From Hydractinia symbiolongicarpus (taxonomy: Eukaryota > Cnidaria > Hydrozoa > Anthoathecata > Hydractiniidae), in the NCBI RefSeq assembly GCF_029227915.1, contig NC_079878.1, forward strand, positions 1,984,001-2,048,000: a DNA stretch of 64,000 bases, read 5' to 3'. This document shows positions 1,769 to 59,830 of the stretch, in pieces. The notes below the pieces were generated by a model, which saw only the letters and a list, made by a program, of their open reading frames with translations, was not told where the DNA came from and made no database searches. The number at the start of each line of letters is the position of its first letter. Within the stretch, counting starts at the first letter, position 1. The position numbers and the translations under genes were made by a program.

Positions 1769-2661
1769 CTTTTCCTGGTTTTAAGAGTAGCGTTTAGCAG
1801 ATGTTGAAACTTATAAACTCTATTCTGCAGTTTATAATTTAATGAGAAAAATATTATCTTAATAAGACAATATTATCTTCCCGGGCTTATCGTGCCTATC
1901 TCACAATCCGGTAATTTTAAAAGGGTTTGAAAGTTTTTAATGGATTTTTATTGAGACAAAAACTAGGAATTTTCAAAATTTGACAAATGAACGTTTACAT
2001 TTAGGGTCTGAAATACCCCCAATTCCCGTCACCGCAAGGCCGAAACACCGACATGCAATCTAAGTATAAGCTTTTTCTCTGATAAGAATATGCTTTATAA
2101 GAATATCAGGCTGGGATTTCAGTTTAAAAACAATAAGCCTATTGCTAAGAACAATACTGAAATAAGAATATTGATCAGTTTGGTTATAATATTGATATGC
2201 TTATAAAAGTGTGTATCAATTAACTCAATGATTCAAGAACTAAATACTCGAGTTTCAGACCTTTTAAATTTATTGCGAAGTAAATAAACGTCTAATTCGT
2301 CATCTAAATAACAAAGTTTATATTCTGTGAATTAACAATTCATTCTTTTATAATTAATTCGTTAGTAGGGTATCTATAGCAACCATTTTCAACTTTAAAA
2401 ATGGTAGCAGATAATAACAGATCTTTTTTATGAATGTAAACATTAATTTCTCTTGGAGCAATTAAAACGTAATGAAAGTAAAGTAGAAGTTGCCATGGGG
2501 GAAATAAATGTTAGTAAAATGGTAGCGCTGTGGCAAAACAACATGTTTGTTATCTGTTATGTGAAAGTAGGTAAGGTAGAGAAAAGTTGCCAAAAGTTTC
2601 AGTTCTAGAGATATTGTGGCTACCAACGATAAAGCCGCGTTCATTGTTTAAGTGTATAGTA

Positions 2662-2668
2662 TATAAAA
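2662..2668 (+). promoter_or_regulatory. candidate TATA box of the zinc finger-Tudor-TIR gene
   Basis: TATAAAA lies 86 bases before the ATG at 2754, leaving room for a start site near 2690-2700 and a short 5' UTR. The start site itself is inferred; there is no direct evidence of transcription. Confidence 0.45.
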
Positions 2669-2753
2669 CCTTAAGCAAACACTTCTAAATTCAACCAGTG
2701 GTTGCGCAAAGTGTCTCTTCCACAAATTTATTAGCAAAGCACATATAGTAAAA

Positions 2754-5700
2754 ATGGGATGTGGAGCAAGTCGGGTGAAATGTCCGAAGTGTGAAAAATT
2801 TGAATCAAAAGACGGAGAAAGTTTGTTAAATCACGTCGAAAAAGAACATACTATAATATGTAGCACTTGTGGACTCAAAGGATTCTCGTCAATGGATGCG
2901 CTGTCGAACCATTTCCAAAAATTACACATCGGTATTGACGATTCTTATGAAGACGGAGATATAAATACGGATGTCGTCGACGTAGTTAATGGTTCTTATA
3001 ATGAAGCATCAATAATGTGCCCTAAATGCAACGATGTTAGTTTTAATGATGGTGAAACGTTTTTGGAACATTTGCAAACTAGCCATGAGCTTGCATTACA
3101 TTCTGTTTGCGAAATTGCTAACAACAACAATAACAACAACAACAACAACAACAACATGTCGGCACCGAAACTTAATAAAAACTTAAAAGTCGGCGACAAA
3201 ATTCTTGCTATGTGGTCTCGGTCGAAGTGGCAATATTTTCACGCTACAATAGTCAGATGCATTCCAAGTGAATTGAAATATGAGATTGACTGGGATGATG
3301 GAGATACCACAGGTGTGTGTAAATCTTTGTGTATTTTTTTCGTTAAGTAAAAACATAAGAAGAGGGGGTCGATTTAAATAATCACACGTACGTCCAAGGA
3401 TAATGTCTATTAGGCGCTTGGACTCATCTTTTTTCTTAAAACTGTCTGTGCAAAATAAAAATCGGATTCCTGTTACTTTCTAATCGTAATGGTGCACAAC
3501 CTCGCACCCAGAGATTCTTGCTTTTTTAATATTGAGGCCTTTTCAGGCCGGGATTTGTGGGGCTCTAAAAAGCCGGGGGCGGGGGCTTAAAAAAACCTTG
3601 TTTCCAAAAGCGATGGAGAAAAGTTAAAATAAAATTGGGTAACATTATCCAGAATGTCTAGAATGACGTCATCATAAGTTACTATGACAACAACCGTGGT
3701 TTTACACGAAAATATTTATATCATATTTTAATCCAGAAGCTAAGTAAGTATGATGAAAAGTCACCCCATTTCAACCCCTGATACAGTATGCTTCCGCAGT
3801 TGTTACATCATATTATTAAATTTTCTTTCGTAGGTCGCATTGTAGACTATTATAACGTAGCCGTTGATAAAGTCCCAGATGTAAAAAATGTGGGCATTGG
3901 AAGTATCATTCTGTTCCCACAAGGACAATACCAAGCGAGCGGCACTCAATTAACCGGCGGTAAGAGATGGCACCAGGGAAAGATAACCAACATATACAAA
4001 CGAGACAACACAACGTACTATGATGGCGTACATACGAAAGGTACCGAAGATGGAAAATGGGTGACGCATAAAGGATTTTCAAAACATTTTACAAGATACC
4101 AACTAGAGGATTTCCGAGTGGGTCCAAATGTTTTTGATATAATAGAAGACACGAGTGATGCTACTAAAACTGAAGATATTGATATCTATTTTTCATTTTC
4201 TGGTAGCGACGGCGGATTTACGAAGGTTGATAGCAATATTTGCGATCCGGCTGATATTGTTGCTGATTTGAAAGTAAAAGGGTTGAATGTAGTGAATGGT
4301 TCTAAGGATAATAAAAATGAGGAGTTGAAAGTAAAACTGCAGAAAATGAAAAATTCTAAGGTTTTTGTAGCGTGCATTACAGACGAGTACGCTTTAAACG
4401 ATGATTGTCGAATGGAGTTTCAATATGCTAAATCAACGTTGAAAAAACCGGTTGTGCCTTTAGTTTTCGGCGACGGAATGGAATGGATGATGACCGTAGT
4501 AGGTAGAGAGTCAGTTTTTTGTTAATAATACGTGCACTGTTTTTTTACTGCTTATGTGAATTGTTTATGGTCTTAAGAAAGAACTGAGCTTTTAGTAATG
4601 AAAAGCTTATTTGGGTTTTTTTTAAATGCCATACAAGTTTAGTGTCTCACTTCTCCAATTGCTTACAAAATAAACAAAGAAATCCATAATGGCTGCAGAA
4701 ACCAAGTTGTCAATGAAACAACTTTTTTCATTGTTATTATAAAACTTCTTTATATAAAGTTTTTACATTCCTACAAACCTCCTCTCCGCGGTATTCAATC
4801 TGTTCAAAATAAAACCACTGCTGAGTAATTTATTGCTGCTTGCAGACGGAATCGTGGGTTTACCACAGATTAAGAACTAGTTTAACTTTAATGCTCCTTG
4901 CTGTTTTTAAACTGGTACCGAAGAATTGTGTTTAAATGATGATAAATTGGAACCATGTTTTTAATCCATTCTTTTTTGTAACCTATCAACATTTCAATTC
5001 TTACTACTAGTGTTTATCCTGTAAAAAAACAGCGGGTATTCACAACAACTGGGTTCGATGTTGAGGTATTCATTCACCCGCTGTATATATATGACTATGT
5101 ATAGGACTACTTCGTGCAGTTTTAGCAAAGAGTGGCGTTTTAGCACAATCTCGTCCCCAGGGACTATTTTGCGCCAGAATGCATACTAGAAAGCAACAAA
5201 GCAGCTCTGGAGACGAGGTTGTGATTTATCAGTCATTTCAGACAGGGAACGTGTATTAGTATAACAGATTATACTTTTTATAACTATGATTATTCTTTAG
5301 GTATGTTGTTGGCAGGAGAACTGTACATACATTTTAAGGACAAGAGTGTTCAAAAGCTAAAATTTGAGGAAATGCTAAAGTCACTGTCACAGCATATATC
5401 GAAAAATATTGATTCGACTGTTGACGAAGACGAAAAGCATTCAAATCTGCCCCCGGGTATGTACTTCATAACATAATGATTAGCTGAAGTTTATATATGA
5501 AATCACATAGGGTTCTTTTTAATATCGAAACGGCGAATTGTTTAGTTAATTTTAAAAAATGACGTAATTCTCCATTAGTATTCCGCCAACAAATTTTAAC
5601 TCGCTGGTAAAAGCCGGAAATGCAAACATTGCGCAATAATATAACTGCGCATGTGCATTTGCTGAATTTTGTTGCGTCTTGCTTTTATGGAAATTCGCTT

Positions 5701-8397
5701 CTAGAGTGAAATGAATTGATTATATAAATTTATCTGCTATTATCTTCCCCAGGGGTTCTTGCCTCTTTTAGTATTCAGACCGGCGGCAAGGTAAGCGCTG
5801 GCGGCTTTAACATCAGGCAACAAAGCCTGTAGACGAGGATGCTATTATTTGCTTGATATATACAAGATAAAGGTATATGCGCGGAAGTGGCTTAATTTGT
5901 GTATATAAGTGTACCTTGCTGGACATATTTTGTGATTTAGTGAAAAATGTTTTACGCTTTGAGGGATTTATTTTTTGCGAGCACGCCAGAAATATATTTG
6001 CAGATTCGTATTTTTGCAAATTCGAGGCCTTCAATATTTCTGATATGTCTAATTTTTCAACCTCGACTTCCGGGATCTTTGTCTCGTTTTTATAACGGGA
6101 AGGCGAGACGGAATAGACCTTAAAGCCTGATTATATAAGGCGAGTTGGCTCGGTGTTGAATCGCCGCGTGCTAAGCATGATAAAATTAAACAGCTCCGCA
6201 TAATGGCAGATTGCTACTAAAAAAGATTTGAAATTATATGAGGTGAGTCAACCTGCCTAGGCGGACTGGCTCGTTTTTTTAACCCGGAACGGGTTGATTA
6301 GGCGCGTTGACTTGGTTCATATAATATCACTTTGCCGAGCCAGGGCCGGGTTAAAAAGAAGAGCATGCGCATTGTGATTTAAAACAGAAAAAGCACGATA
6401 ATGGCGAGCGAAGCAGCAGACAAGAAGCTTAAGTGGACTTCAGAACTTGTGGAGCAGCTTACGCGGATTTTCTTGTTTGTGCTGTAAACGTTTTAAAAGT
6501 TCGTCTTGTTAAAAAATATGTCAATGACAAATACAGAACACCTTGGATTTGGAATAACAAACTATTGGCGGCCCAAATACTTAATGGTAACTTCCCTTGT
6601 TTGTTTACATCTTGCATCCGCCATCTTCAAAAAAATACGCACATTTTTTTTTTAACCCGGCAGCAGTGTAGGCTTGACCCGGGTTTTTCAAACGGGCTGG
6701 CCCGCCAACCGGGTCAACACCTAGCCAACTCGCCTCATATAATCAGGCTTTTAAATAAAAAAAAATTTTCTTGACGTCCCTTATATTAAAAAGAGAAAAA
6801 AAAGAAACCCTAGGATCGAGGTTGCTAATTTTTATTAATTTGTTTTATATTTTTGCATAGGTGACGTTTTTATATCATACTGCTGGTCAAATTCGTACCT
6901 AGCCCAGCAAAACAAACAAATAAATACATTCTCAGGTACAGAATTTTCAGATCCGAGGTTGATATCATCTCATCTAAATGAAGAAGGTATAGTCACCTGG
7001 CTTGATATTGAACGCTTAAAATCAGCGGACAAAAATGCAGGTCTATTTGAACAACTGACAAAAGCCTTAAGAGAGGCTAAAGTTTTCGTGCCGTTTATTA
7101 GTGACGAATACGCGAAAAGCGCGAATTGTAGGATGGAATTGCAATTTTCTTTGAAATATCTTGGCAAAAGAGTTATTCCAGTTGTTGTTGGGAAAGGAAG
7201 TATGTGGAAAGAAACAGCAGTTGGAATGCTTCTGGAATCGAACGATGTGAAAATCATAAACTTGCAAAATGAGGATAATGAAACAAGCTTCAGGATAAAA
7301 TTAAAAGAAATAATCAAAGCAATAAAGAAGAATTTAAATGTCAAAACAAGTCCAAGAAAACAAAAGCTTTCTCGCGCTCCGACAATGGGTGATCATGTTA
7401 TATGCCATCACGTTAATTATTGCTATTACACTGCTACTGTGATCGGTTATAATATCTCCACGATGGAGTACACTGTCAACTGGGATGATGGAGATCCTTC
7501 AGGAAGAGTACAAATGTATAATCAAGTAAGCTAAGATATTATCTCCCAACTTCGACCACAGGCCTTTTTTCTCCTTTCGTCCCGTTATAAAAAAAATAAA
7601 AAAACCGTGTGGTCAAGGTTGCTTATTTCTTTTGTCAAACTCCTTCTCAGATCCCAAAGATATTTATCTTTGCGAATCTGATGTCAAAGCTGATCTTATT
7701 TTTTTGCAAAGTTGCAGTTTTCTGGAGAAGCATTTGCAAGGAATAAAGCTTCTGTTCATACTTCGCAGTATTTATTTTTGCATGTTGGGTCACAAAGAAA
7801 AACATTTGTGTACATACTGCCCAAAATCGCAAAGATAAACCTAGGATAACATCAGCAAAATTAACCCCTGTTGATACATCAATTCTGGATTTTTTAACAA
7901 CCTTATTCCTAAAGCCCTTTATTGCTTATTTGGAGCCTAAGAGCATAAAGGTAAAAGTTTAATCGAGATCATTTCCATCGCCTGCTCCCATTTCTTTATT
8001 AGGACAGCGCCGATGTCAAAATAGATTCAAGATGCCCTGGGGACAAGGTTGTGCAACATCTTTTTAATATAATTTTTATAATACCTTTTTTCAATTTTAG
8101 GTGGCACTAGATGTTGTACCAGATCCAGATGACGTGGGAGTTGACTCAATTATATTCTTTCCGCAAGGTTCTTATGGTGCAACCGTTGGCAACAATGATG
8201 GGGGTATCCGTTACCATGAAGGGATTATCACCAAGGTGACCAAAACAGCAAATGATATATTATTTAACGGACATCACACACGTGGCGTAGAAGATGGTAA
8301 GTCCTGTAGGTATAGAGGATACGAATATGAATTTCTAAATATTAGCATTCAAGAAATCAGAATAGCGCCATCAGCATTAGACGCCGTTGCAAGATAG
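2754..8397 (+). CDS. zinc finger-Tudor-TIR-TIR-Tudor protein, 5 coding exons, 781 aa
   Basis: Exons are 2754-3312, 3834-4502, 5301-5456, 6861-7525 and 8101-8397. All boundaries are GT/AG, the phases agree and the total is 2346 nt. Residues 1-8 are MGCGASRV, a classical myristoylation/palmitoylation-type start. C2H2-like fingers lie near 10-32, 36-58 and 89-111, followed by 12 Asn (123-134). A Tudor-like barrel with WDDGD at 180-184 continues into a second half at about 205-290 (GSIILFPQG). TIR domain 1 spans about 302-440 and TIR domain 2 about 462-620 (begins GDVFISYCW). A second Tudor-like module (WDDGD at 669-673, then SIIFFPQG) closes the protein. Both TIRs keep a C-R-M-E motif (Glu381, Glu554) where NAD-cleaving TIRs carry their catalytic Glu. 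TIR1 has a shortened, divergent BB-loop region. Function is inferred only: cytosolic or membrane-attached innate immune signalling or NAD metabolism. I recognise the domains but not a named orthologue. Confidence 0.85.
3494..3600. mobile_element. CAACCTCG-family element in intron 1, partial
   Basis: A left arm (CACAACCTCGCACCCAGAG, then a T tract) is present. The body is G-rich and the right arm is not clearly preserved. It lies inside intron 1 (3313-3833) of the TIR gene. Confidence 0.45.
5143..5223. mobile_element. CAACCTCG-family element in intron 2
   Basis: Left arm CAATCTCGTCCCCAGGG and right arm CTCTGGAGACGAGGTTG are good reverse complements. The unit is only about 80 bp. It lies inside intron 2 (4503-5300) of the TIR gene, the rest of which shows nothing recognisable. 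Confidence 0.7.
5740..5842. mobile_element. CAACCTCG-family element in intron 3, subfamily with AAGTAAGCGCT core
   Basis: The arms are TTCCCCAGGGGTTCTTGCCTC and GCCTGTAGACGAGGATG. The interior GGTAAGCGCTGGCGGC...TTAA segment is nearly the same as one inside the copy at 14726-14850, which defines a subfamily. Confidence 0.65.
6056..6823. mobile_element. CAACCTCG-family element in intron 3, split by a nested transposon
   Basis: The left arm (CAACCTCGACTTCCGGGATC...TATAACGGGA) ends at about 6119 and the right arm (AGAAACCCTAGGATCGAGGTTGC) lies at about 6800-6823. The separation is explained by the 628-bp insertion at 6123-6750. Without the insert the element would be about 140 bp. Confidence 0.65.
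6123..6750. mobile_element. PIF/Harbinger-like non-autonomous element with TTA target duplication
   Basis: The ends are inverted repeats: AAGCCTGATTATATAAGG at the left and its near-perfect complement CCTCATATAATCAGGCTT at the right. Both are flanked by TTA (6120-6122 and 6751-6753), the 3-bp target duplication typical of PIF/Harbinger. Inside, from the ATG at 6401, a short frame reads MASEAADKKLKWTSEL and then hits a stop after about 28 codons. This resembles the start of the Myb/SANT-type DNA-binding ORF that accompanies Harbinger transposases. The element sits inside the small element at 6056-6823, in intron 3 of the TIR gene. Confidence 0.75.
7547..7622. mobile_element. CAACCTCG-family element in intron 4, shortest copy
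   Basis: CAACTTCGACCACAGGCC at the left pairs with GTGTGGTCAAGGTTG at the right. The unit is 76 bp and centred on CCCGTTATAAAAA. It begins about 20 bp after the splice donor of exon 4. Confidence 0.65.
7960..8055. mobile_element. CAACCTCG-family element in intron 4, degraded left arm
   Basis: A good right arm (GCCCTGGGGACAAGGTTGTG) lies near 8032-8053. The left arm (AATCGAGATCATTTCC) is a weak match. It lies about 45 bp before the acceptor of exon 5. Confidence 0.45.
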
Positions 8398-13656: not shown

Positions 13657-13735
13657 GTTTCTCGTTTTTAATTTAATTTATTTCAAGAGACATTTAAACA
13701 CGTATTATATTTAGGACGCAAAAAATTGACAGAGA

Positions 13736-14194
13736 ATGGATTCGATGACTCAACGCGATCGCGATTTATTGGAGGAATCGTTTAGCCTTTACGACACTGT
13801 TGGCGATTCTAAAATCGACATAGGAATTTTGGGTGAAGCACTTCGAGGACTCGGTTTAAACCCTACAGAGGGAGATGTACAAAAAATCGTAAAAGAATTA
13901 GATTCTACTGGTTCACGACGTGTCAGTTTCGAAGAGTTTTTACCAATGTACCTGTCGTTATCAGCGAAAGCTAGCGACCGACACAAGAAAAATGTAACCG
14001 ATTTTATTGAGTGCTTTCGTGTTTTTGACAAGGAACAAAATGGCACGGTATCAGCGGGAGAGTTACAACATGTCATGACCACTTTAGGCGAGCCGCTTAC
14101 TCCAGCCCAAGTTGATTTGCTCACAAGTGGAATTGAAGATAAAAATGGCATGGTTAACATTGAAGAATTTGTTGCCATCGTGATGCAGGGTTGA
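13736..14194 (+). CDS. myosin essential light chain, intronless CDS, 152 aa
   Basis: A two-lobed EF-hand protein of 152 residues, the usual length of myosin essential (alkali) light chains, which wrap the first IQ motif of the myosin neck. Family marks are visible: [10 protein letters not shown] (39-48), FEEFLPM (65-71), [20 protein letters not shown] (94-113) and TTLGEPLT (115-122). Hand 3 (98-109) has a complete ligand set, D-x-E-x-N-x-T-x-S-x-x-E. Hands 1, 2 and 4 are degenerate, which is normal for this family. The frame opens with ATG and closes with TGA with no splice signal needed. An AG at 13713-13714 leaves room for a 5' UTR intron. Calmodulin or troponin C is less likely because only one loop looks calcium competent. 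An intronless CDS may be a lineage trait or a retrocopy origin. Confidence 0.8.
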
Positions 14195-17177: not shown

Positions 17178-20100
17178 CTATAGTGACCTAGTAGGCGAGG
17201 TTTCTACTTCCATATTGTGTTGTTGTCTCTGCTCCTCCTCTTCTTCCATTTGTTCTAACCTCCTCTGGTTTCGCGTTCTAGATCGACTACATCGTAACGT
17301 CCCGCCACGCCTTTTGGGCGCGCGAGGAGAACGGCCCGCGCGTGGCGATTTGGATTTTGTTATTTGTCCAATCGTGTCGTTTGACGAAGTGAGCTTGCAA
17401 GGATTTGAGGTCGTACCTGCTCCACAGTCGCAAAAGAATCTAAATAAACAATAAACTTTGATTTATTCTGTGGAAAAATATTAAATCTACAAAGAACAAT
17501 TGAAAGAAGAATAGGTTTTTTATAAGCACCAATTTTTAGACGCAAACTATTCAAAAAACAAAACAACAAAAAAGAAATATGAGCCTTGGCTAAAGTTGCG
17601 TATAAAAAAGTTGATGTACAGCCGTTTGCAGCAAATTTTTCATTTCTTAAGGGCTTTTAGAATTCTTGTATAAATTCTTGTATAAATACTTTTTAATAAG
17701 CCACAGGTTAATTTTTTACTAGTGCCACGTTGAAACATAATATCTAAATAAAGTTTCGAAAACTAACCAAACAACAATAAAAAAAAACGGCAGACGAATC
17801 TTAAAGCATGACAGACGAATCTTAAAAGCTGACAAACCTGTCATGTCGGACAAATTCAACGTCGTGGCCTCCATGACAATTCTTGATGCAGTTTACACAA
17901 ATGGCGAAATTTTCGGTTGAGGAACACGTTATACATCGATAGAAATCATGCATAGGATAGCACACACTCCCAGAAACTTGATACAAACATTTGCCAGCTT
18001 CAATCGCCTCGCTAAGTGCTCTTTTGTTGTCATGGCAATTATTGTCTAAAAAAAATTAACATTAACATATAATTAATATTTTCAAATGGTGCGGATTTGG
18101 CGAAATCGTTCGCGAAATATGGGAGTAGCTACTCATATATGTATAAATTCCAGATTTTTTTATTTCCAAATCTACTGGATTACTAAGCGATTGTATGTAT
18201 CTACCCGTACGACCCTAAAGTTTCATTTTGTCGGTACGACTTTACGCTAAAAGATGCCTTATTTGCAGGCTGCGGTAATGGAAGAGTAAAATCATAAGTT
18301 TGGAATTGCTTTAATTTCATCCATATAAAAAAGATATCGGATGGTGAGATTATGGTGAGATTATTCTATTATTACTTTACTCAGAGTGCGTTTAAAAAAA
18401 CCTCATTGTTATTCTTAAACACGTTTTATCTTTTGCAGTAATAACACCAGCAGAAAATGTAAAGCAAGCTGCAGATTTGTATAAAAAAAAAATGAAAATG
18501 AATGTTTGTAAATAAAGTAACAGGACACGTGTTTGGTACCTATTCATAACACTTTTATGTAGTCGATGTCACAATAAATATTTAAAGTTATTATTAAAAA
18601 GGGTTATTTTTTACGCCTAACAACACATGGCGGTGAACAACAAAGAAATAAAAACCAGTTTGTTATTACAAGTTACAATCACTCTCTCTACGTGTCTTTA
18701 CATTCATTCTTACTATTCTACACTGGCATATTGCTTCATATTTTCTGGTGGTGGTATTGTTGATAAAGTTGAAGGGTGTTTAAGAATAACCACGAGGTTA
18801 TTTTTAAATACAGTTTAAAACAAACGGGTGCCGAAAATGATCAAGTGAAATTATCACAAGATATATATTACCCATGCATGGCAGCGGGTTATTTATTTGC
18901 AGTGTGATTTTAAATTTTAACCAATAATCAAGATTTGCTAAAATCAATTCCAATAGCAGTTTAAAAAGAACTCTTCACTTTCAGAATAATTTCAAAAAAA
19001 ATGAGATAACATTTTTTAATTATAGTATTTGAAATAATGTAAACCAATTTACTCGAAATTGCGTGGCAGCCGCAACATTTGCCCATTTTGTTATACTCTG
19101 ATGGCTAGCCAGCCATTTCCATCAAAACACCAATACGTATCATAATTTTAAAGAAAATGAAACTTTTTTAGGGCTTGGTGGTGTCAACCGCATGCCATGT
19201 CGACCGCAAAATCTGCCCACACTTTGAAGTACAATAAAAAAAAGAATTAGGTACCAAAATGGACCTATGTCCCAGCTTTTACTCATAATTATGTGATATG
19301 AACGACAGTGTAAACCACATTTTGGTACAAAGCGATTTCACAATTAAGTGTTTAATTTTTGAACGCGACCACAAATATATCCATCTTTACTAATTTTTTT
19401 GTCAAAGTTGCGGCAAATTAAAGAAAAATGGTACGGTTTATTCGCCTCTGTTAAGGAAATTTTTATAACTCACCTAACATCTTGGGATTAACACCAGTTG
19501 CAAGACATATCCCATCAAAACGATTGTTGAACACTTCATTGCGTTCGAAGATGCCTCCTATAAAGAAAATTAAGAATGAAATTTGAATAAACCTGTTAAA
19601 CTTTATAAAAAGAGGTGTCGACAACCCAAAGATAAAAATTTTAGTGGGCGACATAATAACTTATTTTATTAAAACAATGGCAAATTTAGACAATCACTGC
19701 CAAAATTTTAAACAAGTAAAACGAAAAAATGATAAATAATAGTATAACTGGTATAAATAAAATAAATGCTTTAAAAATAAACAATCTACCCCGTATAATC
19801 TTACAATTTTAATTTTTTTGGCCATATTTCCTAAGCACCTAAACAATGTTTGGGATGGAGTGTCAGAATATTTTTTTTATAAAATGGGTGTAACATAAAG
19901 CAGAAGAAACATTGCACATCCTTACCTGCTCCGTTCGTTATTTCGATGCCAGCAGCTCCTCCTTCAAAGATACGATTTCTCCGAAGCACCGGCATACTTG
20001 AAGTACTTATTAAAACACCTGTGAGTGAGTTTCTAAATATATCATTTTCCTCTAGCAAACCTTTTCCATTGTTAAAAATACACACTCCTCCTTCGTGTCC

Positions 20101-23100
20101 ATCGTGGATTTTATTACGTCGCAATATTGGATTACTTTCAGTTTTAATCCATACACCAGCCATAGCGTTATCAAATATTTCGTTGTCCTCCAATATACCT
20201 TGTCCACCATTATAAATTAAAACACCGCCATTCTTACCGCCCCAAATCTTGTTTTGGCGTATGACAGGATTACTGCCACTTCTGGAAAATGAAATTAAAA
20301 AAAATAGTCTTTAGACTTGTGTTCGAATCGAACACAAGTGCACAAAATTAGTTGTGCGCAAATTTAAAAGATTTTATCAACACTTAAATTCAAAATTGAG
20401 CGGTACATTGTGTTCACGAAGTTCCTTTTTTATAATTATCGGTAAGAAGTTCGCAAAAATCAAGCGTGCGCTTAATCTCAGAGCGCGAAAATTAAATGAA
20501 CGCTAAAAAAAGATGCGCGAAAATTTCATGAATTAAGCTATTCCAGATATTTCAACGCGGACGTACATCAATCAGCTGTAAGGTTCAGTTAAGAAAGATG
20601 TTCTACATGAATGCACACACTGCTTTCCACCCTATTGAAATCAACAAGGTTGCCAACAAATATAAACTACATACCTTATTTGAATTCCTGAATATTTATG
20701 GTTGTAAATTTCATTATTCTCCAGGGTACCACAACCTTTATCATAAAAATACACTCCGACCTATACAGTATAAAGAAGATATAATATCTTTATTAAAACT
20801 AACTTCAATAGTATATCATATACAAGTCATTTGAGTTACAATGGAAACAATGGAGATTGACTAATGGTACGGTTACTTTTTTGACGGTTAGTCGCTAATG
20901 GTTAGTCAACTAAAAATAATTTTATGAGATATAATTGTACCTGTTTTCCACTGTGTATGCGATTGTGTCTTAAAATTGGCGCACTTCCTGTGGTTATCCA
21001 TATCCCAGCTAGAGTGTTTGCATAGATTTCATTATCTTCAATAAGTCCCATTCCACCTTCATGAATGTATATGCCACCATGTAAACCATGATGGATTCTA
21101 TTCTTACGAACAATTGGATTACTGTTTGAACGAATTTGTATGCCAGCCAAAGCATTGCCGTGAATGTCGTTGTTTTCAACTAAACCACGACCGTCACCGA
21201 ATACGTAAATTCCACCTTGTTGGCCATGATATATTTCGTTATCTCTATAAGAGGAAAACATAATGCTTGTAAGGCAAGAAAAATACACTATCAGGGCACA
21301 GCTAAGAAAAATATGCTGACTTGCGGAATATCACCTGGGTGTCTAAATACGAATCTCCACGGGACGATTTTTACGACAATCGTCATCAATACTCGAATTT
21401 GATTGGTCGCAATTTTTGCCACGACGAAAAGTTAAATTGGTTTCTACTTTTCATCACAAAAATCGTCCCGAATATCGTCCAGTGAAGATTCGGCTTAAAG
21501 GCCGTCTTTAACTTAATGAAATGCAGTAAGTTTAATCAAAACCAATAGTTTTACTAACTTGGGTATCAAGGAATAGACTTACTTAATTGTTGGGTTACTC
21601 CCCGATGTAACCCACACACCAGCAAAAGTGTTAGTATGAATTCGATTGCACATAAATTCCCCTCGTCCATCGTCGTGAACATAGATACCACCGGTAAAGC
21701 CATGATGGATGTGACATCGAACAACAGTTGGGTTCGCTCCAGAACGAACTTCGATTCCTGCAATTCTATTACTATGGACATCATTTTCTTCGTAATAACC
21801 CTAAATATAGATACCAAGACATTTTAAATTGAGTTAGGACGAACAGCAGCAAATGACATTGACAAGTAACAACAATAAAAAAAACCATTCAGATAAACAC
21901 TGCTTACCATTCCGCCATCAAAGATAAAAAATCCTGCATCTTTCCCATGATGAACTTCATTTCTTTTCATAATTGGATTTGCCCCTGACTTCACCCAGAT
22001 ACCTGCTAGTCTATTCGCGCATATGTCATTGTCTTCATAGGTACCTTGGGCACCTTCGCTGATAAACAGACCCACATTTTCACATTCAGTTATTTTACAG
22101 CGCAAAATTTTTGGCGAACTTCCAGCACCATGAATGTGCACTGCTGCAGCACCTAAAGTAACAAGTGAATAATTTAGAACTCCCATTTTTTTGACATATT
22201 TAAGTAATTATTTTATAATCTAACGCATCTTACAGCTGCTTTTTGATGTGATGTGACAATCTTGAATAGTTGGTGAGCTATCATTACAAATTTCGATACA
22301 GTTACATCTTGCTGAAGTATTTGGCTCAGTTCGTTGTACTGAGAACCTTACAAAGGCAATATGACTTTTCGAACCACCTTGAGAAAATTTCATTATTGTT
22401 TCATTGGTATGTGTGAGATGAACTTCATGTTTACCACCTGGTACTCCTAAAAAAATAAAAATATTACTTCACACTTTTGACAAAATATGATTTGCAACTT
22501 TACACAACTAGAAAGCTATGTTTACCTGCACCAAGTAAGGTAACGGGTTTATTAATTTCCAAACTTTCCTTGTAAGTTCCTGAATGAATGATAACAAGCC
22601 CACTTGAATTGTCCACAGCTTCTTGTATGGATTGATAACACTGTAAAGAAAACACTTATTGGATCACCCATTAACCATAAACATGCAAATATTCTTATTT
22701 CCACAGGCCTCGAAGCTACCGAGTACTACTACTTTCTAATAAACTGTACCTTTCGTCCTAAATTTTGCAAGCAAAGTACCAGCCTTTCATCTTGACAAAC
22801 ATGTTCAGCTTTATTGAGAAGAGGATAGTATTTTCTCCAAGAAATCTCTGGCCTACCAGGGCCACTAATTATATTAACTAGTTCATATAAATTATTTGTA
22901 GGGGATTTTTGTAAAGGATATTCAAGTTGATATGATAAGTGATATAACCTCTTCCTAAGAATAAAAAAATAAATATTTTTACAAAAAAAATATATTGTAA
23001 GGAAGAAGCATGATAAAAATATGTTGCAAAACACAAAATCTGGTGCAGGGCCTATACATGGTGATGCATATTTTTAATTCAAGCTTTAACATTTGTCTTC

Positions 23101-52575: not shown

Positions 52576-54450
52576 AAGATTTCTTTAAAAAAATTAAATT
52601 ATCAAAGAGAGGCGTAAATAATTCCTTTCCGGGGCCTTACTTCCTTAAATTCCTGTTATACGGGTCGGGGTCAGTTATCTACATCCTATTCTATAATGGC
52701 AGACAAGAACATGATGCAGCGAACGAATGCGATTTACTGACCCCGAATGCTGTGCGCTGTTGAACAACACAACAGAAGTGAGAATGGAAGTAAGATATTA
52801 AACATTGAAACACTTTACTTTTATTAAGAATTATGCGCAGTTTTTTAATGTTAGGTTTCTTATTCATTGTTTAAGAAACAACAATTTTGATGACAGGCAC
52901 AACCACATATTAGAGACTATATCACGCCAAATAATTATTAGGACAGTAGCTTTAGTTAGGAAAACTTTATGAATACTCAACAATTGACGCAACTCAGCAG
53001 AATAACGGGTTTATTTTTATTAAACTCTAGAAAAGTGCTAATAGATGAATTCCATTGTTTATATTTTCAGCAGTAGCTAAGGCGTAGTCACAAATATTTG
53101 GTGTTAGACTCAGTCAGAGAGAAAACAGCAATTGGGTTATGTAACCTTAATTAGGCTATCATCTCTTAACTAAGCCATGCTGATAGCCTAATTAGGATAT
53201 GAAATCATATTTTTAACTGTTGCAAAAGAAATGCGCACATTCGCGTCCATATTACTAGTTGCTTTGATTCTCTACCAATGACTGGGCCTAACTCATCAAA
53301 ATGTCAACAAAAAATAACGACTGGTCGACGAAATATTTACATTTAATAAAATTCCTGTGAAAATGACTTAATTAGGATACTAAATAGCCTAATAAGAATG
53401 TCGAACAAAATGTGGTTTTCAAAATGTCACTAGTGGATGTTGTGGGAAAGAATCTCCTAGTTAGGCCATGATAAGATAATTAGACTATATGCAAAATATT
53501 TTGCCGACTTTGGTCAATATCTTTTAGTTCCGTCATACAAATGCGACAATTTTTTCAGTATCAAAGTTTGGAGATTTGGCTGCACACAGAAACAAGAAGC
53601 CCAGCGGCTTAAAGATTTCTGCCATTAGCAATAATCTGAACTTTGAAAAGGACTGAGTAATATGGGGGAGCAAAATCTTTCAATATTCTAAAATTTTGAA
53701 ATCGTGATTGCAGCGATGGATTGTGAATAACATTAAAAATATTAAACAATAGATGTGTATAGCTAATCTTGTGTCTTTGTTTTTGTTTTTTTATATTTAA
53801 AAATTCTTTTACATCTTGTATTTTTATTAGAAATTAGATTTTCGAAATAAGGTGACTCCAACCTAATTCTTGTTCTACGCGCGAAGCAGATAGTAGTTTA
53901 CGGTCTGTCGGTCAGCGAAATAAAAATAATTTTATTGAAAATGTATAAAACCCTAACAACAAAAAAATAAAAAAACAACAACGGAGGAGGGTGTTACGAC
54001 AAGCATATTTTTCTATGTATGTTTTGCTTGTATTAACGAATGTTAAATTAACGAATGTCCGATTTAATGAAAGTTCATGGAAAAATAAGAATGTATGGTC
54101 GGAACAACAACAACAAAATAATAATAAAATAACGGAGGAGAATGGTACAGCAACTGTTTTCTATGTATTTTTGCATAACGCACACAGTTTATATTTTTTA
54201 GTTGCGAAGGAGAAATAATAATAATTTATCTCACTAAAAAAATGTAACTAGTACTCAAGGTGAAAAGATAAAAATGCTTGCATGTTAAAAAAACTTGTTT
54301 TCAAAAGTTATGCAGCAATTTTTTTTTGTGTTGTTTTGAAAGCGTACAACAAGAATTATTCTTGTGCTGTTTCGAAAGTTATACAGAATCTACCTGCGTT
54401 GTTTTGAAAGATATACAGCAGATTATACTTAGGCTGTTTCGAAATTTATA
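52576..54450. other. intergenic DNA with ATTAGG-type repeats
   Basis: No gene seen. A segment at about 53105-53220 (GACTCAGTCAGAGAGAAAAC, GGGTTATGTAACCTTAATTAGG) recurs inverted near 60800-60885. Short CAA-rich tracts are found at 53960 and 54105. Confidence 0.4.
53105..53220. repeat. dispersed repeat, copy 1 (partner near 60800)
   Basis: It shares CAGTCAGRGARAAAACAGCAA followed by GGTTAT and several AATTAGG words with the reverse complement of 60800-60885. Function and type are unknown. Confidence 0.5.
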
Positions 54451-54465
54451 CATCATCATCATCAT

Positions 54466-55144
54466 AATTCTCGGCTTAACGTTCGTTTTCCATGCTAGCA
54501 TGGGTTGGACGGGGTATATTAATGACCCAGGAACTATCAAGTCTCTACACTTTCTTACCAAATTATCTCCCTCCATTCTTTCCAAGTGCCCCAGCCAATT
54601 CAATCTTCTTATCTGGATAACATCTTCAATTCTACGGATACTTAGCCTGCTTCTTAGCTCATCTGAACTCTTTCTGTCTCTCAGACTGGCGTTACACATC
54701 CACCTAACCATTCTCATACCATTCTTTTCTAAACGGTTAAGATCTTCCTGCTTCACTGCCCATGTCTCACTACCGTTCAACATACAACCTTCCTTTTAAC
54801 TCAATTCACAAGACGCTAGTCAACAAAGGAAGTAATTCTCTGAACTTTTTCCAAGCAGAACCTATCCTGAAAGTAACACTTCTTCCAACACCCCCTTCGT
54901 TGCCCAACATATCACCTAAGTAACAGAAGTTCTCAACTAACTCTAACGAGCCACTGTTGTACATCATTGAAGCTGGAAATACTTCAATCTCTGTAATCTC
55001 ACCTTTGCAACGCTTGCATACAAACTGAATGTCAGCTCTTAACCTTCCACCAATACTACTGCACTTCTTATGTACCCAATGCTTGCATGTCTGACAAAAA
55101 ATTAAGTTACTGCTAACCCCTTTCCTTGGCTGCAATACTACCAA
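54466..55144 (-). pseudogene. LINE C-terminal region: zinc segment and 3' conserved domain
   Basis: The first part carries FCQTCKHWVHKKCSSIGG and a following CKRC pair, a PHD/RING-like Cys-His pattern typical of the tail of this LINE group, then FCYLGDMLGNEGG. After a frameshift near 54800 a second part reads GSETWAVKQEDLNRLEKNGM and RLNWLGHLERMEGD. The end is truncated into the ATG microsatellite. Non-functional. Confidence 0.75.
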
Positions 55145-56269
55145 TCGTGACTTTAGACTTTGCTGTGTTCACCCTTAGACCTTTCTCTTCTAGTCCTTTC
55201 TTCCACTTCTCAAACTTTTCAACTAATTCTTCCATCGACTCTGCTATGAGAACCAAATCATCTGCTTACAATAACTCCCATGGACAACCTGTTCTGAACT
55301 CTATCGACAGCGCTTCTAAGACTAGAACAAAACAAAGGACTAAGAACAGAACCCTGATGTACACCAACATTTACACTAAATTCATCGCTAAGTGAATTGT
55401 TTGACACAAATTCTAGCATTGCTGTACATAGACTGTACCATCGTCACTAGCCACTTATCCACACCTAATTTTCTCATAGCCCACCAAATAACTTTACGTG
55501 ACACTCTATCAAAAGTTTTCTCTAAATCTACAAAGGCAGAATAGAGATTCTTTCCTTTTCCTAAATACTTTTCCTGAAGCTGTCTGAGTAAAAATATTGC
55601 ATCTGTAGTGCCACGCCCTGGAACAAAACCAAATTGCATCTTATCTATATCAATTCTTTCTCTAAGTAACTTATCAATCACTCTTTCAATAACTTTCATT
55701 ACTTGATCAACCAACTTCAAACCTCTATAGTTACCCCTTTCCAATGCATCACCCTTGCCCTTGAAACAATTCACTATTACACTCGACTGCCTCTCACTCG
55801 GAATAGCACTATCCTTTATAATCTGGTTAGCAAGACTTGTAATAAGCTCAACTCCAATAAATCCAGAGGGTTTTACCATCTCTGCAACAATACCTGATAT
55901 TCCTGCAGCCTTGCCAATCTTCAATTTCCTAATAGCCTCCACTACCCATTCTGTCTTGATCTGCATAGCTGGCACTTCTACAACATCATCATCAGACAAA
56001 TTATCCTCGTCCCAATCAAACTCAGTGTTAAGCAACCTCTGATAATGATTCTTCCAAGCTACCCTTTTCTCCTCCTCTGTGCTAGCCAAAACACCTTCAT
56101 CATTACGTATACACTTCTCACCTACAACATCTTGATTAGTCTTCTTCATTTGCTTTGCTATCTTGAATACCTCATTACGCTGGTCTTCTCTTCTTAACAC
56201 ATCTGCAAATCTGTTTCTCTCTGCTTCTGATTTTGCCTTATACACTTCTGTACGAGCATAGTTTAGCAA
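55145..56269 (-). pseudogene. LINE reverse transcriptase, inactivated
   Basis: Conserved RT blocks are visible: KAAGISGIVAEMVK, GDALERGNYRGLKL, QFGFVPGRGTTDAIF, AFVDLEKTFDRV, and after a frameshift near 55400, HQGSVLSPL. In the catalytic (Y)ADD motif the Tyr codon is replaced by TAA at 55266-55268 and is followed by GCAGATGAT (ADD). Frameshift plus nonsense codon make it dead. Confidence 0.85.
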
Positions 56270-56382
56270 TAAACATTGTTTAAAAACAATACTCTGTGCG
56301 AGAAAAAATTAAACGCAAAAGCCATTGAATTTTTATTTTTTTAACAACGAAAGTAATTATAGTAACGCGATTTTAATCTCGA

Positions 56383-57360
56383 TGTATTTAAAAAACACAA
56401 GCTCTTTTAAAATACAACAAATCCAATGATCTAAATATTTAAAAAAAAACTAATGCTACTTTTAAAACTTCTAGTAATATTTCTTTATCGTCGAAATATA
56501 TTTTTTAACATGCGAAACTTTTAAAAGTTCTTTTTTTAAAAAGCAACGTTTAGCAACGCAAACGAAAAAACCCTACGTTCGGGACTTTTCCCTTCGCAAT
56601 AAGATTTCGAAAACAAATTAAATTTTAATACCGAAGAAAGAAAAAATCTAAAAATATAACTTTTGACGTTTTATAGTATCACGCTACATTTTATTGTTAA
56701 AAAACATTGTCTTTGTTTTTTCTGGCGCGCAACAGCTCTATCTCTTAAAAGATTTAAGCAAAGCATCTCGCTGTCTATTTAGTTTTCGCGCAAATCTTTT
56801 ATTTTATAAAACTATCAAACAATGGCTCGCCATGTCACATTGATAGAGTTGATAACATTTTAAATACTTAAAACACTATATAACAAAGCTTTCTTATCGA
56901 CGTTCTTCCTTCTTTAACTTTCTAAAAAATCATTTCTATCGCCCGTCTTCGTTATTAAACTTTTAAAATGTGATATAACGAAGCTTTTCTATCGCCGTTC
57001 TTCGTTCTTAAACTTTTAAAATGCGATCTAAAAAACATTTCTATCGCTGTTTTTCGTTTTTAAACTTTTAAAAAGCGATCTAAAAAAACATTTCTCTTGC
57101 CGTTTTTCGTTTTAAAACTTTTAAAATGCGATCTAAAAAAGCATTTCTATCGCAGCTTTTTGTTTTTAAACTTTTATAATGCAATCTAAAAAAACATTTC
57201 TATCGTCGTTTTTTGTTTTTAAACTTTTAAAATGCGATCTTAAAAAACTTTCTATCGCCGTTCTTCGTTCTTAAATTTTTAAAATGCGAGCTAATACAGC
57301 TTTTCTATCACCGTTCTTAGTTCTTAAATTTTTAAAATGTGATCTAAAAAAGAAAGATTA
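56383..57360. repeat. dispersed repeat with internal minisatellite, copy 2
   Basis: The first 250 bp align with 43070-43320 (shared AATATTTCTTTATCRTCGAAA, CCCTACGTTCGGGACTTTT). From about 56900 a unit of 50-60 bp, centred on AAACTTTTAAAATGCGATCT and AAAAAGCATTTCTATCGC, is repeated about nine times. It lies between two parts of the LINE, so it was probably inserted there together with or before the element at 57430. Confidence 0.75.
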
Positions 57361-57429
57361 ACGCTAGCTGTGTACCCTAGATTGTTATGCATAAGTTTAA
57401 AAAAATATAACACAAAGGAAGTATAATTA

Positions 57430-58144
57430 CCCTAAATCTCCAAATAAACGCCCCCCATCTTTTAAACGCCTTTCTCTAATAAATGCCCCCCTTAAAATCC
57501 GAAATATTTTATAAACGCCCCCCTCTTTTAAACGCCCCCCTCTATTAAACGCCCCCTCCCTCGAGAGGGGCGTTTTATAGAAGCACTTTTAATAAACCCC
57601 TTAATAAATCCCTACTGGCAAACGGGTCAACCCCTTTTATGTAATAGCTTATAGATGATACAAGAGAAGGAAGAGAAACCAATTAATGATGAGAATTTTT
57701 TTTTTTAAGAAATTACAGGATACTTCTGGTATAAAGACTTTTTTTGGTTAATAGGTTCCAAGGTTTTGTGTCCTTTCGTTGATGTAGCTGCTCGTCTAAC
57801 ACACATGAAATCCGTTTGAATTTGGTGAAACAATACAGTACCCAACTTTGTTCTGTCGGTGCATCAGTTTTGGAAGATCAAACTAAGGTGGTAAATAATA
57901 CTGATGCTAATGAAATTAACCCATTCGAACCTACCGATTCTGACATCGAGGATGCGAATGATCCTGGTAATCTTCTAGATGAAGATGAAGAAGAAGATGA
58001 TTTTTTAACTGTTGTGTAAAAGAAATATAACTAAAATTAAATAAACGCCTCCCTCTTTTAAACGCCTCCCTCTAATAAATGCCCCCCCCCTCAAAACTCG
58101 GAAAATTAAATAAACGCCCTGGGCGTTTATTTGGAGATTTACGG
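57430..58144. mobile_element. TA-flanked pogo/Tigger-like element with residual ORF
   Basis: The ends CCCTAAATCTCCAAATAAAC and the complement of its partner (GTTTATTTGGAGATTTACGG) are inverted repeats, each flanked by TA (57428-57429, 58145-58146), the target duplication of Tc1/mariner and pogo elements. The subterminal regions are arrays of TTAAACGCCCCCC and AATAAATGCCCCCC units. Length 715 bp, far below an autonomous copy. Confidence 0.8.
57816..58019 (+). pseudogene. C-terminal remnant of a transposase inside the TA-flanked element
   Basis: A 67-codon frame ends in an acidic tail (NLLDEDEEEDDFLTVV) and stop. It contains FEPTDSDIEDANDPG. Acidic C-termini of this style occur in pogo/Tigger transposases. 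The catalytic DDE domain is absent, so this is the surviving 3' end of a deletion derivative. The family call rests on context (TA duplication) more than on the protein. Confidence 0.45.
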
Positions 58145-58354
58145 TATATTTAAACATCTACGATCATTGTTGAATACACTCTTATTTTTAAAATAGTTCT
58201 ATTATGAAAAAGTGTTAATGGCCTCAATAGCTTCGAGAATGATATCGAGACGGATGCAATTTGAAAGTAAAAGACGTCTCTCGCGGATCGAGAATACCAT
58301 CGTGAAGCGCGATGTTAAACAACCTTTTCCCAGTACTGTATGCTGGGAAACACA

Positions 58355-58748
58355 CTATTCCCCCGATATAACTTTCACGTCCTTCACCACTTTCTTGTCT
58401 GACTTTCTAACCAGGAAGTAATCTATCTGTGTCTTACAGCCACCTGACTCATATGTTATCGGCCTACTCTGTCTCTTACTGAATAATGTGTTACAAACCA
58501 CCATGTCCTTTGCCATTCCAAACTCAAGAAATCTCTCCCCTTCCTTATTTCTGCTCTTAAATCCATAGCCTCCATGCACACCTCTATAACCTTCAAATGA
58601 CTTCCCAACATGATCATTAAAGTCGCTGCCCACCATGACAAGTTCAGTGTCTCCAAACTTTGATGTGACTGCTATTAACTCATCATAAAACTTATCTTTG
58701 TCTTCCTCACTGAGTCCACACTGTGGAGCATAAACTGACATCAAGAAG
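58355..58748 (-). pseudogene. LINE endonuclease, C-terminal part
   Basis: It contains VYAPQCGLSEEDKDKFYDEL, VGSDFNDHVG (the GDFN-type active-site block with Gly changed to Ser) and QIDYFLV, all characteristic of LINE apurinic-type endonucleases. A TAG after VISGE interrupts what should continue as CVSQHTVL. Its N-terminal half lies at 59339-59816, beyond an insertion. Confidence 0.8.
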
Positions 58749-59330
58749 CCCTGGGGGCTCTAAGAATTTCCACTTGCTATTAAAACATTTGATGACAACC
58801 TGCTAATTCGTTGTGTTATCGTGCCAAGCATTCAAAGAGTTTTGGTGCATGAAGCTCTGGAGATAAAGCATACAAGTGACATTATATCTTACAACAAACG
58901 CAAACAAAACGAAACATGTCAAAATAAACTCACATTTTAAAAGAAATTGCTAACATGGTTGAAAGTCTTGCGATTGAAACGTTTATAGTCTTAAACGACA
59001 TTTATTTGACAAAAAATCAAAATTTTGATGTGACCATCATGTTCAGAATACTTTTTTATTAACTGTGCCAAATTTTGTCGAAAACAGATACTAATTTGGC
59101 CTGAAACGTCATTTAGATGACTTCCCAGTACTTAGAGAGTTTGGGTACAAATTTTAAATCTGACGTTGCAATTGACCATTTGGGACAGGGTTAGTTAGTC
59201 AGTCATACTAATACTATCCTCCTCTCAGAAGAACGTGAAATCAGAGGGTCAATTTTTTCTTAAAAAATGCTCCGAAAGAAAAAAACGACGGTTTTAAAGA
59301 ATTTCCTATACGCCTTCGGGGCGCGGAAAT
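58749..59330. mobile_element. 582-bp insertion in the LINE endonuclease, candidate hAT-like element
   Basis: The LINE frame is interrupted exactly between TCAAGAAG (58741-58748) and TCAAAAAG (59331-59338), an 8-bp target duplication with one mismatch, the length produced by hAT elements. The ends (CCCTGGGGGCTCTAAGAATT and AATTTCC-containing right end with CGCCTTCGGGGCG) are only loosely inverted. Non-coding. The family call is tentative. Confidence 0.5.
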
Positions 59331-59816
59331 TCAAAAAGTGACAATCATATTACCTATCAAAAACTTTATCACTATAATACGACTATTAACACGCATAACA
59401 TCTATTACTTGTTCTACCCACTTCTCTGCATCGAATATGCCAACTCCTCCATATCCATCACTACTACCAATCCAAAAAAGCTTGTACCTTGCCCTCCTAC
59501 CTTCCGCAAATCTCACTGAAGCTTCTCTCCACCTGACTTTCTGAACACAACACATATCAACAGATCTATGTTCTAACATTTCAACTACTTTGTCTGCTCT
59601 ACCTCTCAGAGTACCAACATTTACACTAGCCATCCTCAACCTAGTGTTATCTGCCTTGTGATGTGATAGCTGGGTAACGGTCTGACGATGCTCACACCTG
59701 ACATATATCCTACCGTGCGCAACACCTTCACTCCTTAGAGTTCCAGCCCCGTTTACGCAGTTTGTCTGATCAAGTTTTGGCATTGTTTTACAGCTGGATG
59801 CCCTTCCTAGCACCAA
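59331..59816 (-). pseudogene. LINE endonuclase N-terminal part
   Basis: The frame reads RMASVNVGTLRGRADKVVEM, CCVQKVRWR (with Lys where the family has the catalytic Glu-containing QE pair), and GYGGVGIF, i.e. the first half of the endonuclease fold. It stops artificially at the insertion boundary (59338). Confidence 0.75.
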
Positions 59817-59830
59817 CCGTTCACAGACCG

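What the first reader, a model, noticed from the sequence alone, without database searches (positions are those of the whole stretch)
2754..8397. A zinc finger-Tudor-TIR-TIR-Tudor protein: an unusual, possibly undescribed architecture
Directly seen: three C2H2-like fingers, two WDDGD-containing Tudor-like modules and two TIR domains in one 781-residue open reading frame over five in-phase exons. Known: TIR domains act in innate immune signalling or as NAD-cleaving enzymes; Tudor-like folds read methylated Lys/Arg. I know of no characterised protein with this combination. Inference: a receptor-like or effector protein that links recognition of a modified protein (Tudor) or nucleic acid (fingers) to TIR output.
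Basis: partly seen in the sequence, partly recalled or inferred. Interest (0 to 1): 0.9.

Follow-up and report, generated by a model that had tools for sequence, protein, structure and literature searches.

The report
Ancient lipid-anchored Tudor-TIR protein family
A jellyfish-relative gene joins two immune-type TIR domains to two methyl-mark-reader-like Tudor modules behind a predicted membrane anchor, and the same design recurs in sea squirts, a comb jelly and single-celled choanoflagellates, so it looks like an old and so far unstudied cell-defence or cell-death switch.

Summary
Five exons (2754-8397, +) encode 781 residues: three C2H2-like fingers (below Pfam cut-offs), Tudor module, TIR, TIR, Tudor module. 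A model of a homologue gives both TIR folds; Tudor barrels are supported less strongly. It is not a one-off: full-length relatives occur in cnidarians, tunicates, a ctenophore and choanoflagellates, unnamed or called 'uncharacterized', 'hypothetical' or by a domain. Best reading: a membrane-anchored single-chain TIR effector, NAD-processing TIR2 with a dead TIR1 partner, Tudor modules as sensor or lock. Enzyme activity, lipidation and ligand are untested. No paper on the architecture was found in an open-licence library, some lists seen only in part.

The parts
2662..2668 (+). TATA-box-like TATAAAA, 92 bases before the start codon
   Evidence: pattern scan; consensus match only
2754..3312 (+). 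exon 1 (residues 1-186 and first base of codon 187)
2754..2774 (+). MGCGASR: N-myristoylation consensus G-x-x-x-S with Cys3 as possible palmitoylation site
   Evidence: sequence; MGxxxS in 36 of 52 full-length rows; consensus from passages of PMC5492501; lipidation not shown
2778..2849 (+). C2H2-like finger 1 (residues 9-32)
   Evidence: zf-Di19/C2H2 matches below cut-off
2859..2927 (+). C2H2-like finger 2 (residues 36-58)
   Evidence: below cut-off
3015..3086 (+). C2H2-like finger 3 (residues 88-111)
   Evidence: by eye in the sequence
3183..4138 (+). Tudor module 1 (residues 144-288), across intron 1
   Evidence: Tudor_3; first barrel of the family profile matches KDM4A Tudor 3.2e-6
3834..4502 (+). 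exon 2
4172..5392 (+). TIR1 (residues 300-440), across intron 2; keeps Glu381 (4415-4417) but lacks W-x-D
5301..5456 (+). exon 3
6861..7525 (+). exon 4
6861..7351 (+). TIR2 (residues 462-625)
6998..7006 (+). Trp508-x-Asp510 of TIR2 (52 of 52 rows)
7136..7138 (+). Glu554 codon, candidate catalytic glutamate of TIR2 (51 of 52 rows)
7379..8379 (+). Tudor module 2 (residues 635-776), across intron 4
8101..8397 (+). exon 5 with the stop codon
8414..8419 (+). AATAAA polyadenylation-like signal

Best explanation
A membrane-anchored, single-chain TIR effector of an ancient animal/choanoflagellate family. The N-terminal glycine is lipidated and holds the protein at a membrane (inferred). Two Tudor modules flank a tandem TIR pair and read a methylated or otherwise modified protein, or lock the TIR pair until such a ligand appears (inferred). 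On release or clustering, TIR2, which keeps the NADase-type Trp-x-Asp and Glu, cleaves NAD+ or makes a nucleotide signal, with TIR1 as a catalytically dead partner that completes the TIR-TIR assembly (inferred from conservation). Output: cell death or an innate immune signal (inferred). Estimates: real conserved gene family 0.98; membrane anchoring 0.8; TIR2 an NAD-processing enzyme 0.6; TIR1 a non-enzymatic partner 0.65; Tudor modules bind a methylated ligand 0.45.
Confidence: 0.5

Rival explanations
1. A scaffold/adaptor: both TIRs work by protein-protein assembly only, like the myristoylated TIR adaptor TRAM, linking a membrane receptor to downstream partners; the Tudors are further docking modules.
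For: N-terminal lipidation-type motif, for which TRAM is the precedent (passages of PMC5492501); the Hydra TRR-2 TIR is the top VIA row for TIR2; MyD88 and TLR TIRs are among the weak profile matches; TIR1 is degenerate.
Against: Near-invariant W-x-D and Glu in TIR2 over choanoflagellate-to-tunicate divergence while TIR1 lost them suggests a selected active site; the two best-scoring solved relatives of TIR2 are Cat1 and a plant TIR.
Confidence: 0.3
2. A non-immune housekeeping role: the protein reads a methylated cytoskeletal, ribosomal or membrane protein and regulates NAD or traffic in development.
For: No burst of copies was seen: the TIR_2 search of this genome gave the gene, its near-identical copy and one diverged paralogue with recognisable TIR1-TIR2, though only the places fetched were read and the search is not exhaustive; the two near-identical copies differ by 1 residue of 781.
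Against: TIR, HEPN and Roc-COR partners of these modules are typical of defence and death proteins (established knowledge).
Confidence: 0.15
3. Artefact: two adjacent genes joined by eye, or chance TIR/Tudor look-alikes.
For: None found for the joined model; only the fingers are below Pfam cut-offs.
Against: Full-length homologues in several phyla that run through the junctions, Pfam above cut-offs, folds.
Confidence: 0.01

Closest known systems
SARM1 (NAD+ hydrolase) and other NADase TIRs (plant RUN1/L6/RPP1, AbTIR, Cat1, SPARTA TIR-APAZ)
   Different: No ARM, SAM or LRR in the Pfam scan; tandem unequal TIRs; Tudor modules; N-terminal lipidation motif
53BP1 / KDM4 / SETDB1 / UHRF1 Tudor readers
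   Same: Tudor barrel; sequence match of the first barrel to KDM4A 3.2e-6; Foldseek matches to 53BP1 and SETDB1
   Different: Second barrel carries the family's FPQGxY...GG.RxHxG...HTKG..DGKW stretch, not matched by sequence; ligand unknown; membrane context inferred
TRAM (TICAM2)
   Same: N-myristoylated TIR protein (passages of PMC5492501)
   Different: No Tudor modules or tandem TIRs in TRAM (recalled)
LRR-Roc-COR-TIR_2 'Novel Gene 1' of anemones (PMC5094078, section 11 read) and Macrostomum P0066
   Same: P0066 ends in two TIR_2 stretches, the second with W-x-D and N-C-x-M-E, the first degenerate by eye; that Novel Gene 1 itself has a TIR pair is inference
   Different: Roco GTPase and LRR instead of Tudor modules
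Dictyostelium TirE (PMC13142454, passage)
   Same: Two diverged tandem TIRs
   Different: RCC1 repeats; no Tudor mentioned

Membership tests
TIR domain superfamily | Pfam TIR model above cut-off and TIR fold | tested here: met
TIR NADases | conserved alpha-C glutamate | tested here: met
   TIR2 51 of 52 rows; aligns with C-L-M-E-L of flax L6; that this Glu is catalytic in L6 is established knowledge, recalled
TIR NADases | NAD+ cleavage | not testable with these tools
   needs an enzyme assay
SARM1 | ARM repeats and SAM domains beside the TIR | tested here: not met
   no ARM or SAM among Pfam matches up to E 1 in the window protein
Tudor 'royal' family | Tudor model above cut-off and Tudor fold | tested here: met
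methyl-lysine-reading Tudors | complete aromatic cage | tested here: inconclusive
   module 1 keeps Trp154 48/52, Tyr161 45/52, Asp182 52/52; module 2 has His at the Trp place in 44/52; cage positions taken from recall of 53BP1
N-myristoylated TIR adaptors (TRAM-like) | G-x-x-x-S/T start | tested here: met
   36 of 52 rows incl. the window; lipidation itself not shown
MyD88 | death domain next to TIR | tested here: not met
   no death domain in the Pfam scan
Toll-like receptors | LRR ectodomain | tested here: not met
   no LRR in the Pfam scan
C2H2 zinc-finger proteins | fingers above Pfam cut-off | tested here: inconclusive
   below cut-off here, above in Clytia P0017

The most novel reading that the evidence does not exclude
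A pre-animal, self-contained 'reader-to-NADase' switch: one lipid-anchored chain in which an asymmetric TIR pair (dead TIR1, live TIR2) is held between two Tudor readers and fires when a modified self or foreign protein (for example methylated chromatin or a viral/bacterial protein reaching the cytosol) is bound. TIR1 was disabled independently in choanoflagellates and in animals, which would make the unequal pair itself the selected device. The family would be an overlooked ancestral immune/death effector kept in cnidarians, ctenophores, tunicates and choanoflagellates.
Probability: 0.3. Interest if true: 0.87.

Novelty: new variant of a known kind. Interest (0 to 1): 0.76.

Why it matters
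It gives a name-worthy, testable family in tractable animals (Nematostella, Hydra, Clytia, Ciona) and in choanoflagellates (S. rosetta, Monosiga), near the origin of animal immunity. A TIR-atlas preprint (PMC13142454, section 5 read) says that six eukaryote-only TIR clades have never been characterised, some with cnidarian members; whether these TIRs fall in those clades was not tested. An enzyme coupled directly to Tudor readers on a membrane would link protein methylation to NAD depletion or signalling, and the twice-broken TIR1 lets one ask why TIR enzymes need an unequal partner.

Tried and rejected
Two-gene or chance reading: rejected. Recent bacterial transfer: a scan of genome contigs with the TIR2 profile (21 stretches matched a pattern) confirmed one distant TIR only (L021, 27% identity), so no support; viral contigs with the Tudor profile (27 stretches) confirmed none. 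PADLOC hits of three homologues are weak TIR matches. Rfam and tRNA scans of the window were empty. The homologue searches listed 59, 18 and 18 proteins; in the first two only the 7994 candidates sharing most words were scored, so they cannot show absence from sponges, vertebrates or arthropods. Of the 59, 47 cover 95% or more of the searched region and 12 are shorter or of other make-up. The third search, meant to find other effectors on the Tudor module, added none beyond P0045. For the 52-row counts I dropped 16 of 67 proteins (other architectures, short pieces, a second isoform, and P0054, whose model lacks the TIR1 helix: P0042, P0045-P0047, P0049, P0051-P0056, P0058, P0059, P0064, P0066, P0067) and added the window protein. 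The one TIR2 row without Glu, S. rosetta P0061, lacks that helix, probably a gene-model error; an earlier 47-row alignment with P0054 and without the proteins gave 47 of 47.

Literature seen: PMC5094078 (passages, section 11), PMC7075850, PMC6040629 and PMC5492501 (passages), PMC13142454 (abstract, outline, section 5, passages); all others as search listings only. Poole and Weis 2014 was seen only as a reference; Gerdol 2017 is recalled, not seen. Direct searches for the combination or for accessions: 0 papers; 0; 1, PMC5974088, about TIRR and 53BP1, unrelated. Broader searches were seen in part: 20 of 28, 15 of 390, 15 of 25, 15 of 111, 5 of 5. 'No paper' holds for this open-licence library and these searches only.

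Full report
WHAT IS THERE. In a near-identical second copy in the same genome the splice sites are kept and the coding part differs at 4 of 2346 bases and 1 residue. Pfam gives TIR_2 (1.3e-19, two stretches) and Tudor_3 (4.4e-10, two stretches) above their cut-offs; finger models are below cut-off. The two halves repeat each other far beyond shuffled controls.

WHAT IT BELONGS TO. A search of a 5.8-billion-protein database found 59 relatives; 47 of them cover at least 95% of the searched region (residues 135-781), at 33-55% identity. Named full-length ones come from Rhopilema, Clytia, Hydra, Nematostella, Actinia, Desmophyllum, Montipora, Acropora (Cnidaria), Ciona, Styela, Clavelina (Tunicata), Bolinopsis (Ctenophora) and the choanoflagellate Monosiga brevicollis. 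A profile search added Salpingoeca rosetta and further EukProt proteins that I take for choanoflagellates from the tree and from recall of their name style. Those with a source name are called 'uncharacterized', 'hypothetical' or by a domain. Of 51 homologues aligned, 50, 50, 51 and 51 run gap-free through the four exon junctions. The order Tudor-TIR-TIR-Tudor is constant in this set; what precedes it varies: fingers in medusozoans and Bolinopsis, other N-termini (coiled-coil-like by eye) in anthozoans, tunicates and Monosiga, a PH domain in P0048. A tree places the window with hydrozoans.

MEMBRANE ANCHOR. The protein begins MGCGAS. Of 52 full-length rows 36 have M-G-x-x-x-S (in P0001, P0015 and P0061 at an internal Met, in P0034 after an extra Met), 4 more begin Met-Gly without the Ser, and 12 have neither, several being models that start late. 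G-x-x-x-S/T is a published N-myristoyltransferase consensus (PMC5492501, passages). That one of the rows without it carries a PH domain (4.8e-10) fits membrane placement being what is selected. Lipidation is not shown.

THE TWO TIR DOMAINS ARE UNEQUAL. They are related to each other (hhalign probability 100, 1.6e-43). TIR2 has Trp508 and Asp510 in 52 of 52 rows and Glu554 in 51 of 52. Its profile matches the CRISPR-associated Cat1 TIR at 5.4e-7 and the plant SNC1 TIR at 0.003; other plant TIRs, AbTIR and SARM1 follow at 0.009-0.08, with MyD88 close behind at 0.08. TIR1's profile matches TIRs only at 0.13 or worse, below an unrelated engineered protein at 0.002. In the HMMER alignment Glu554 falls on the Glu of flax L6's C-L-M-E-L; that this Glu is catalytic in L6, RUN1 and SARM1 is established knowledge, recalled. 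TIR1 lacks the Trp in all 45 rows that are not choanoflagellate-type (44 of these keep the Glu); the 7 choanoflagellate-type rows all keep the Trp, but 6 lost the Glu; only P0063 keeps Trp, Asp and Glu. Only two of the 7 are named (Monosiga, S. rosetta); the 45 include P0057 and P0065, unnamed and of uncertain placement. The simplest reading is a duplicated active TIR whose first copy was disabled separately in two lineages while the second was kept. This is the strongest new evidence for an enzymatic, asymmetric pair.

MODULES ARE SHUFFLED. P0066 (Macrostomum) puts a TIR pair behind LRR-Roc-COR; P0045 (Dendronephthya) joins the Tudor module to a HEPN_DZIP3 domain; P0042 (Clytia) is Tudor repeats behind an MGAANS start and one C2H2-like motif seen by eye. 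The TIR pair and the Tudor module are therefore separable units, paired with domains typical of immune and death proteins.

HOW IT PROBABLY WORKS. Shown: gene, family, conservation pattern, predicted folds. Inferred: anchoring by lipid, regulation or sensing by the Tudor modules, NAD processing by TIR2 with TIR1 as a structural half, and cell death or an immune signal as output. The main rival is a non-enzymatic scaffold like TRAM.

NOVELTY. Direct searches of the open literature found no description of the combination; broader ones were seen only in part (in full). An anemone survey lists LRR-Roc-COR-TIR and other architectures, with no occurrence of 'Tudor' in its main text (PMC5094078); a choanoflagellate survey names TIR with Ank, Arm, SH2 and kinase, again without 'Tudor' (PMC6040629); a TIR-atlas preprint notes uncharacterised eukaryotic TIR clades, also without 'Tudor' (PMC13142454). 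I rate it a new variant of a known kind (TIR sensor-effectors), unusually old and conserved.

Noticed in passing
window 1-64000 and own genome C4:10.544-10.629 Mb: The whole window plus about 20 kb upstream recurs colinearly 8.6 Mb away on the same contig at about 98.3% identity: an uncollapsed haplotype or a large segmental duplication.
   Followed up: partly
L010 (own genome C14:10766500-10774500), 2283-4804: Diverged paralogue with TIR1, TIR2 and Tudor 2 in one stretch that is open apart from an in-frame stop in Tudor 2; 92% identical to P0023, which comes from a transcript-sized contig. Pseudogene or sequence error.
   Followed up: partly
own genome C2:12.69-13.93 Mb: Of 30 TIR_2 places at E<=0.001 in the genome, 8 lie here with similar scores and equal 171-aa open frames: probably a recently expanded TIR family; identity among them not measured.
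   Followed up: no
P0045 (Dendronephthya gigantea LOC114526443): HEPN_DZIP3 joined to several Tudor modules of this family.
   Followed up: partly
P0066 (Macrostomum lignano): LRR-Roc-COR protein ending in two TIR_2 stretches, the second with W-x-D and Glu, the first degenerate by eye.
   Followed up: partly
750, 1676, 5149, 5206, 5826, 8036, 11815, 15114, 44229: Short repeat CCTCGTCCCCAGG (up to 2 mismatches): 9 copies against 0.13 expected, four of them inside this gene's introns 2-4; MITE-like.
   Followed up: no
13733-14191 (+): EF-hand (calmodulin/centrin-like) protein in a single open frame.
   Followed up: no
19834-22207 (-): Open frames of a right-handed beta-helix repeat protein; Pfam run on two of the three, the third by eye.
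   Followed up: no
54379-59843 (-): LINE-type element in pieces: a reverse transcriptase match and an endonuclease match below cut-off.
   Followed up: no
3120-3155 (+): Run of 12 asparagines before Tudor module 1.
   Followed up: no
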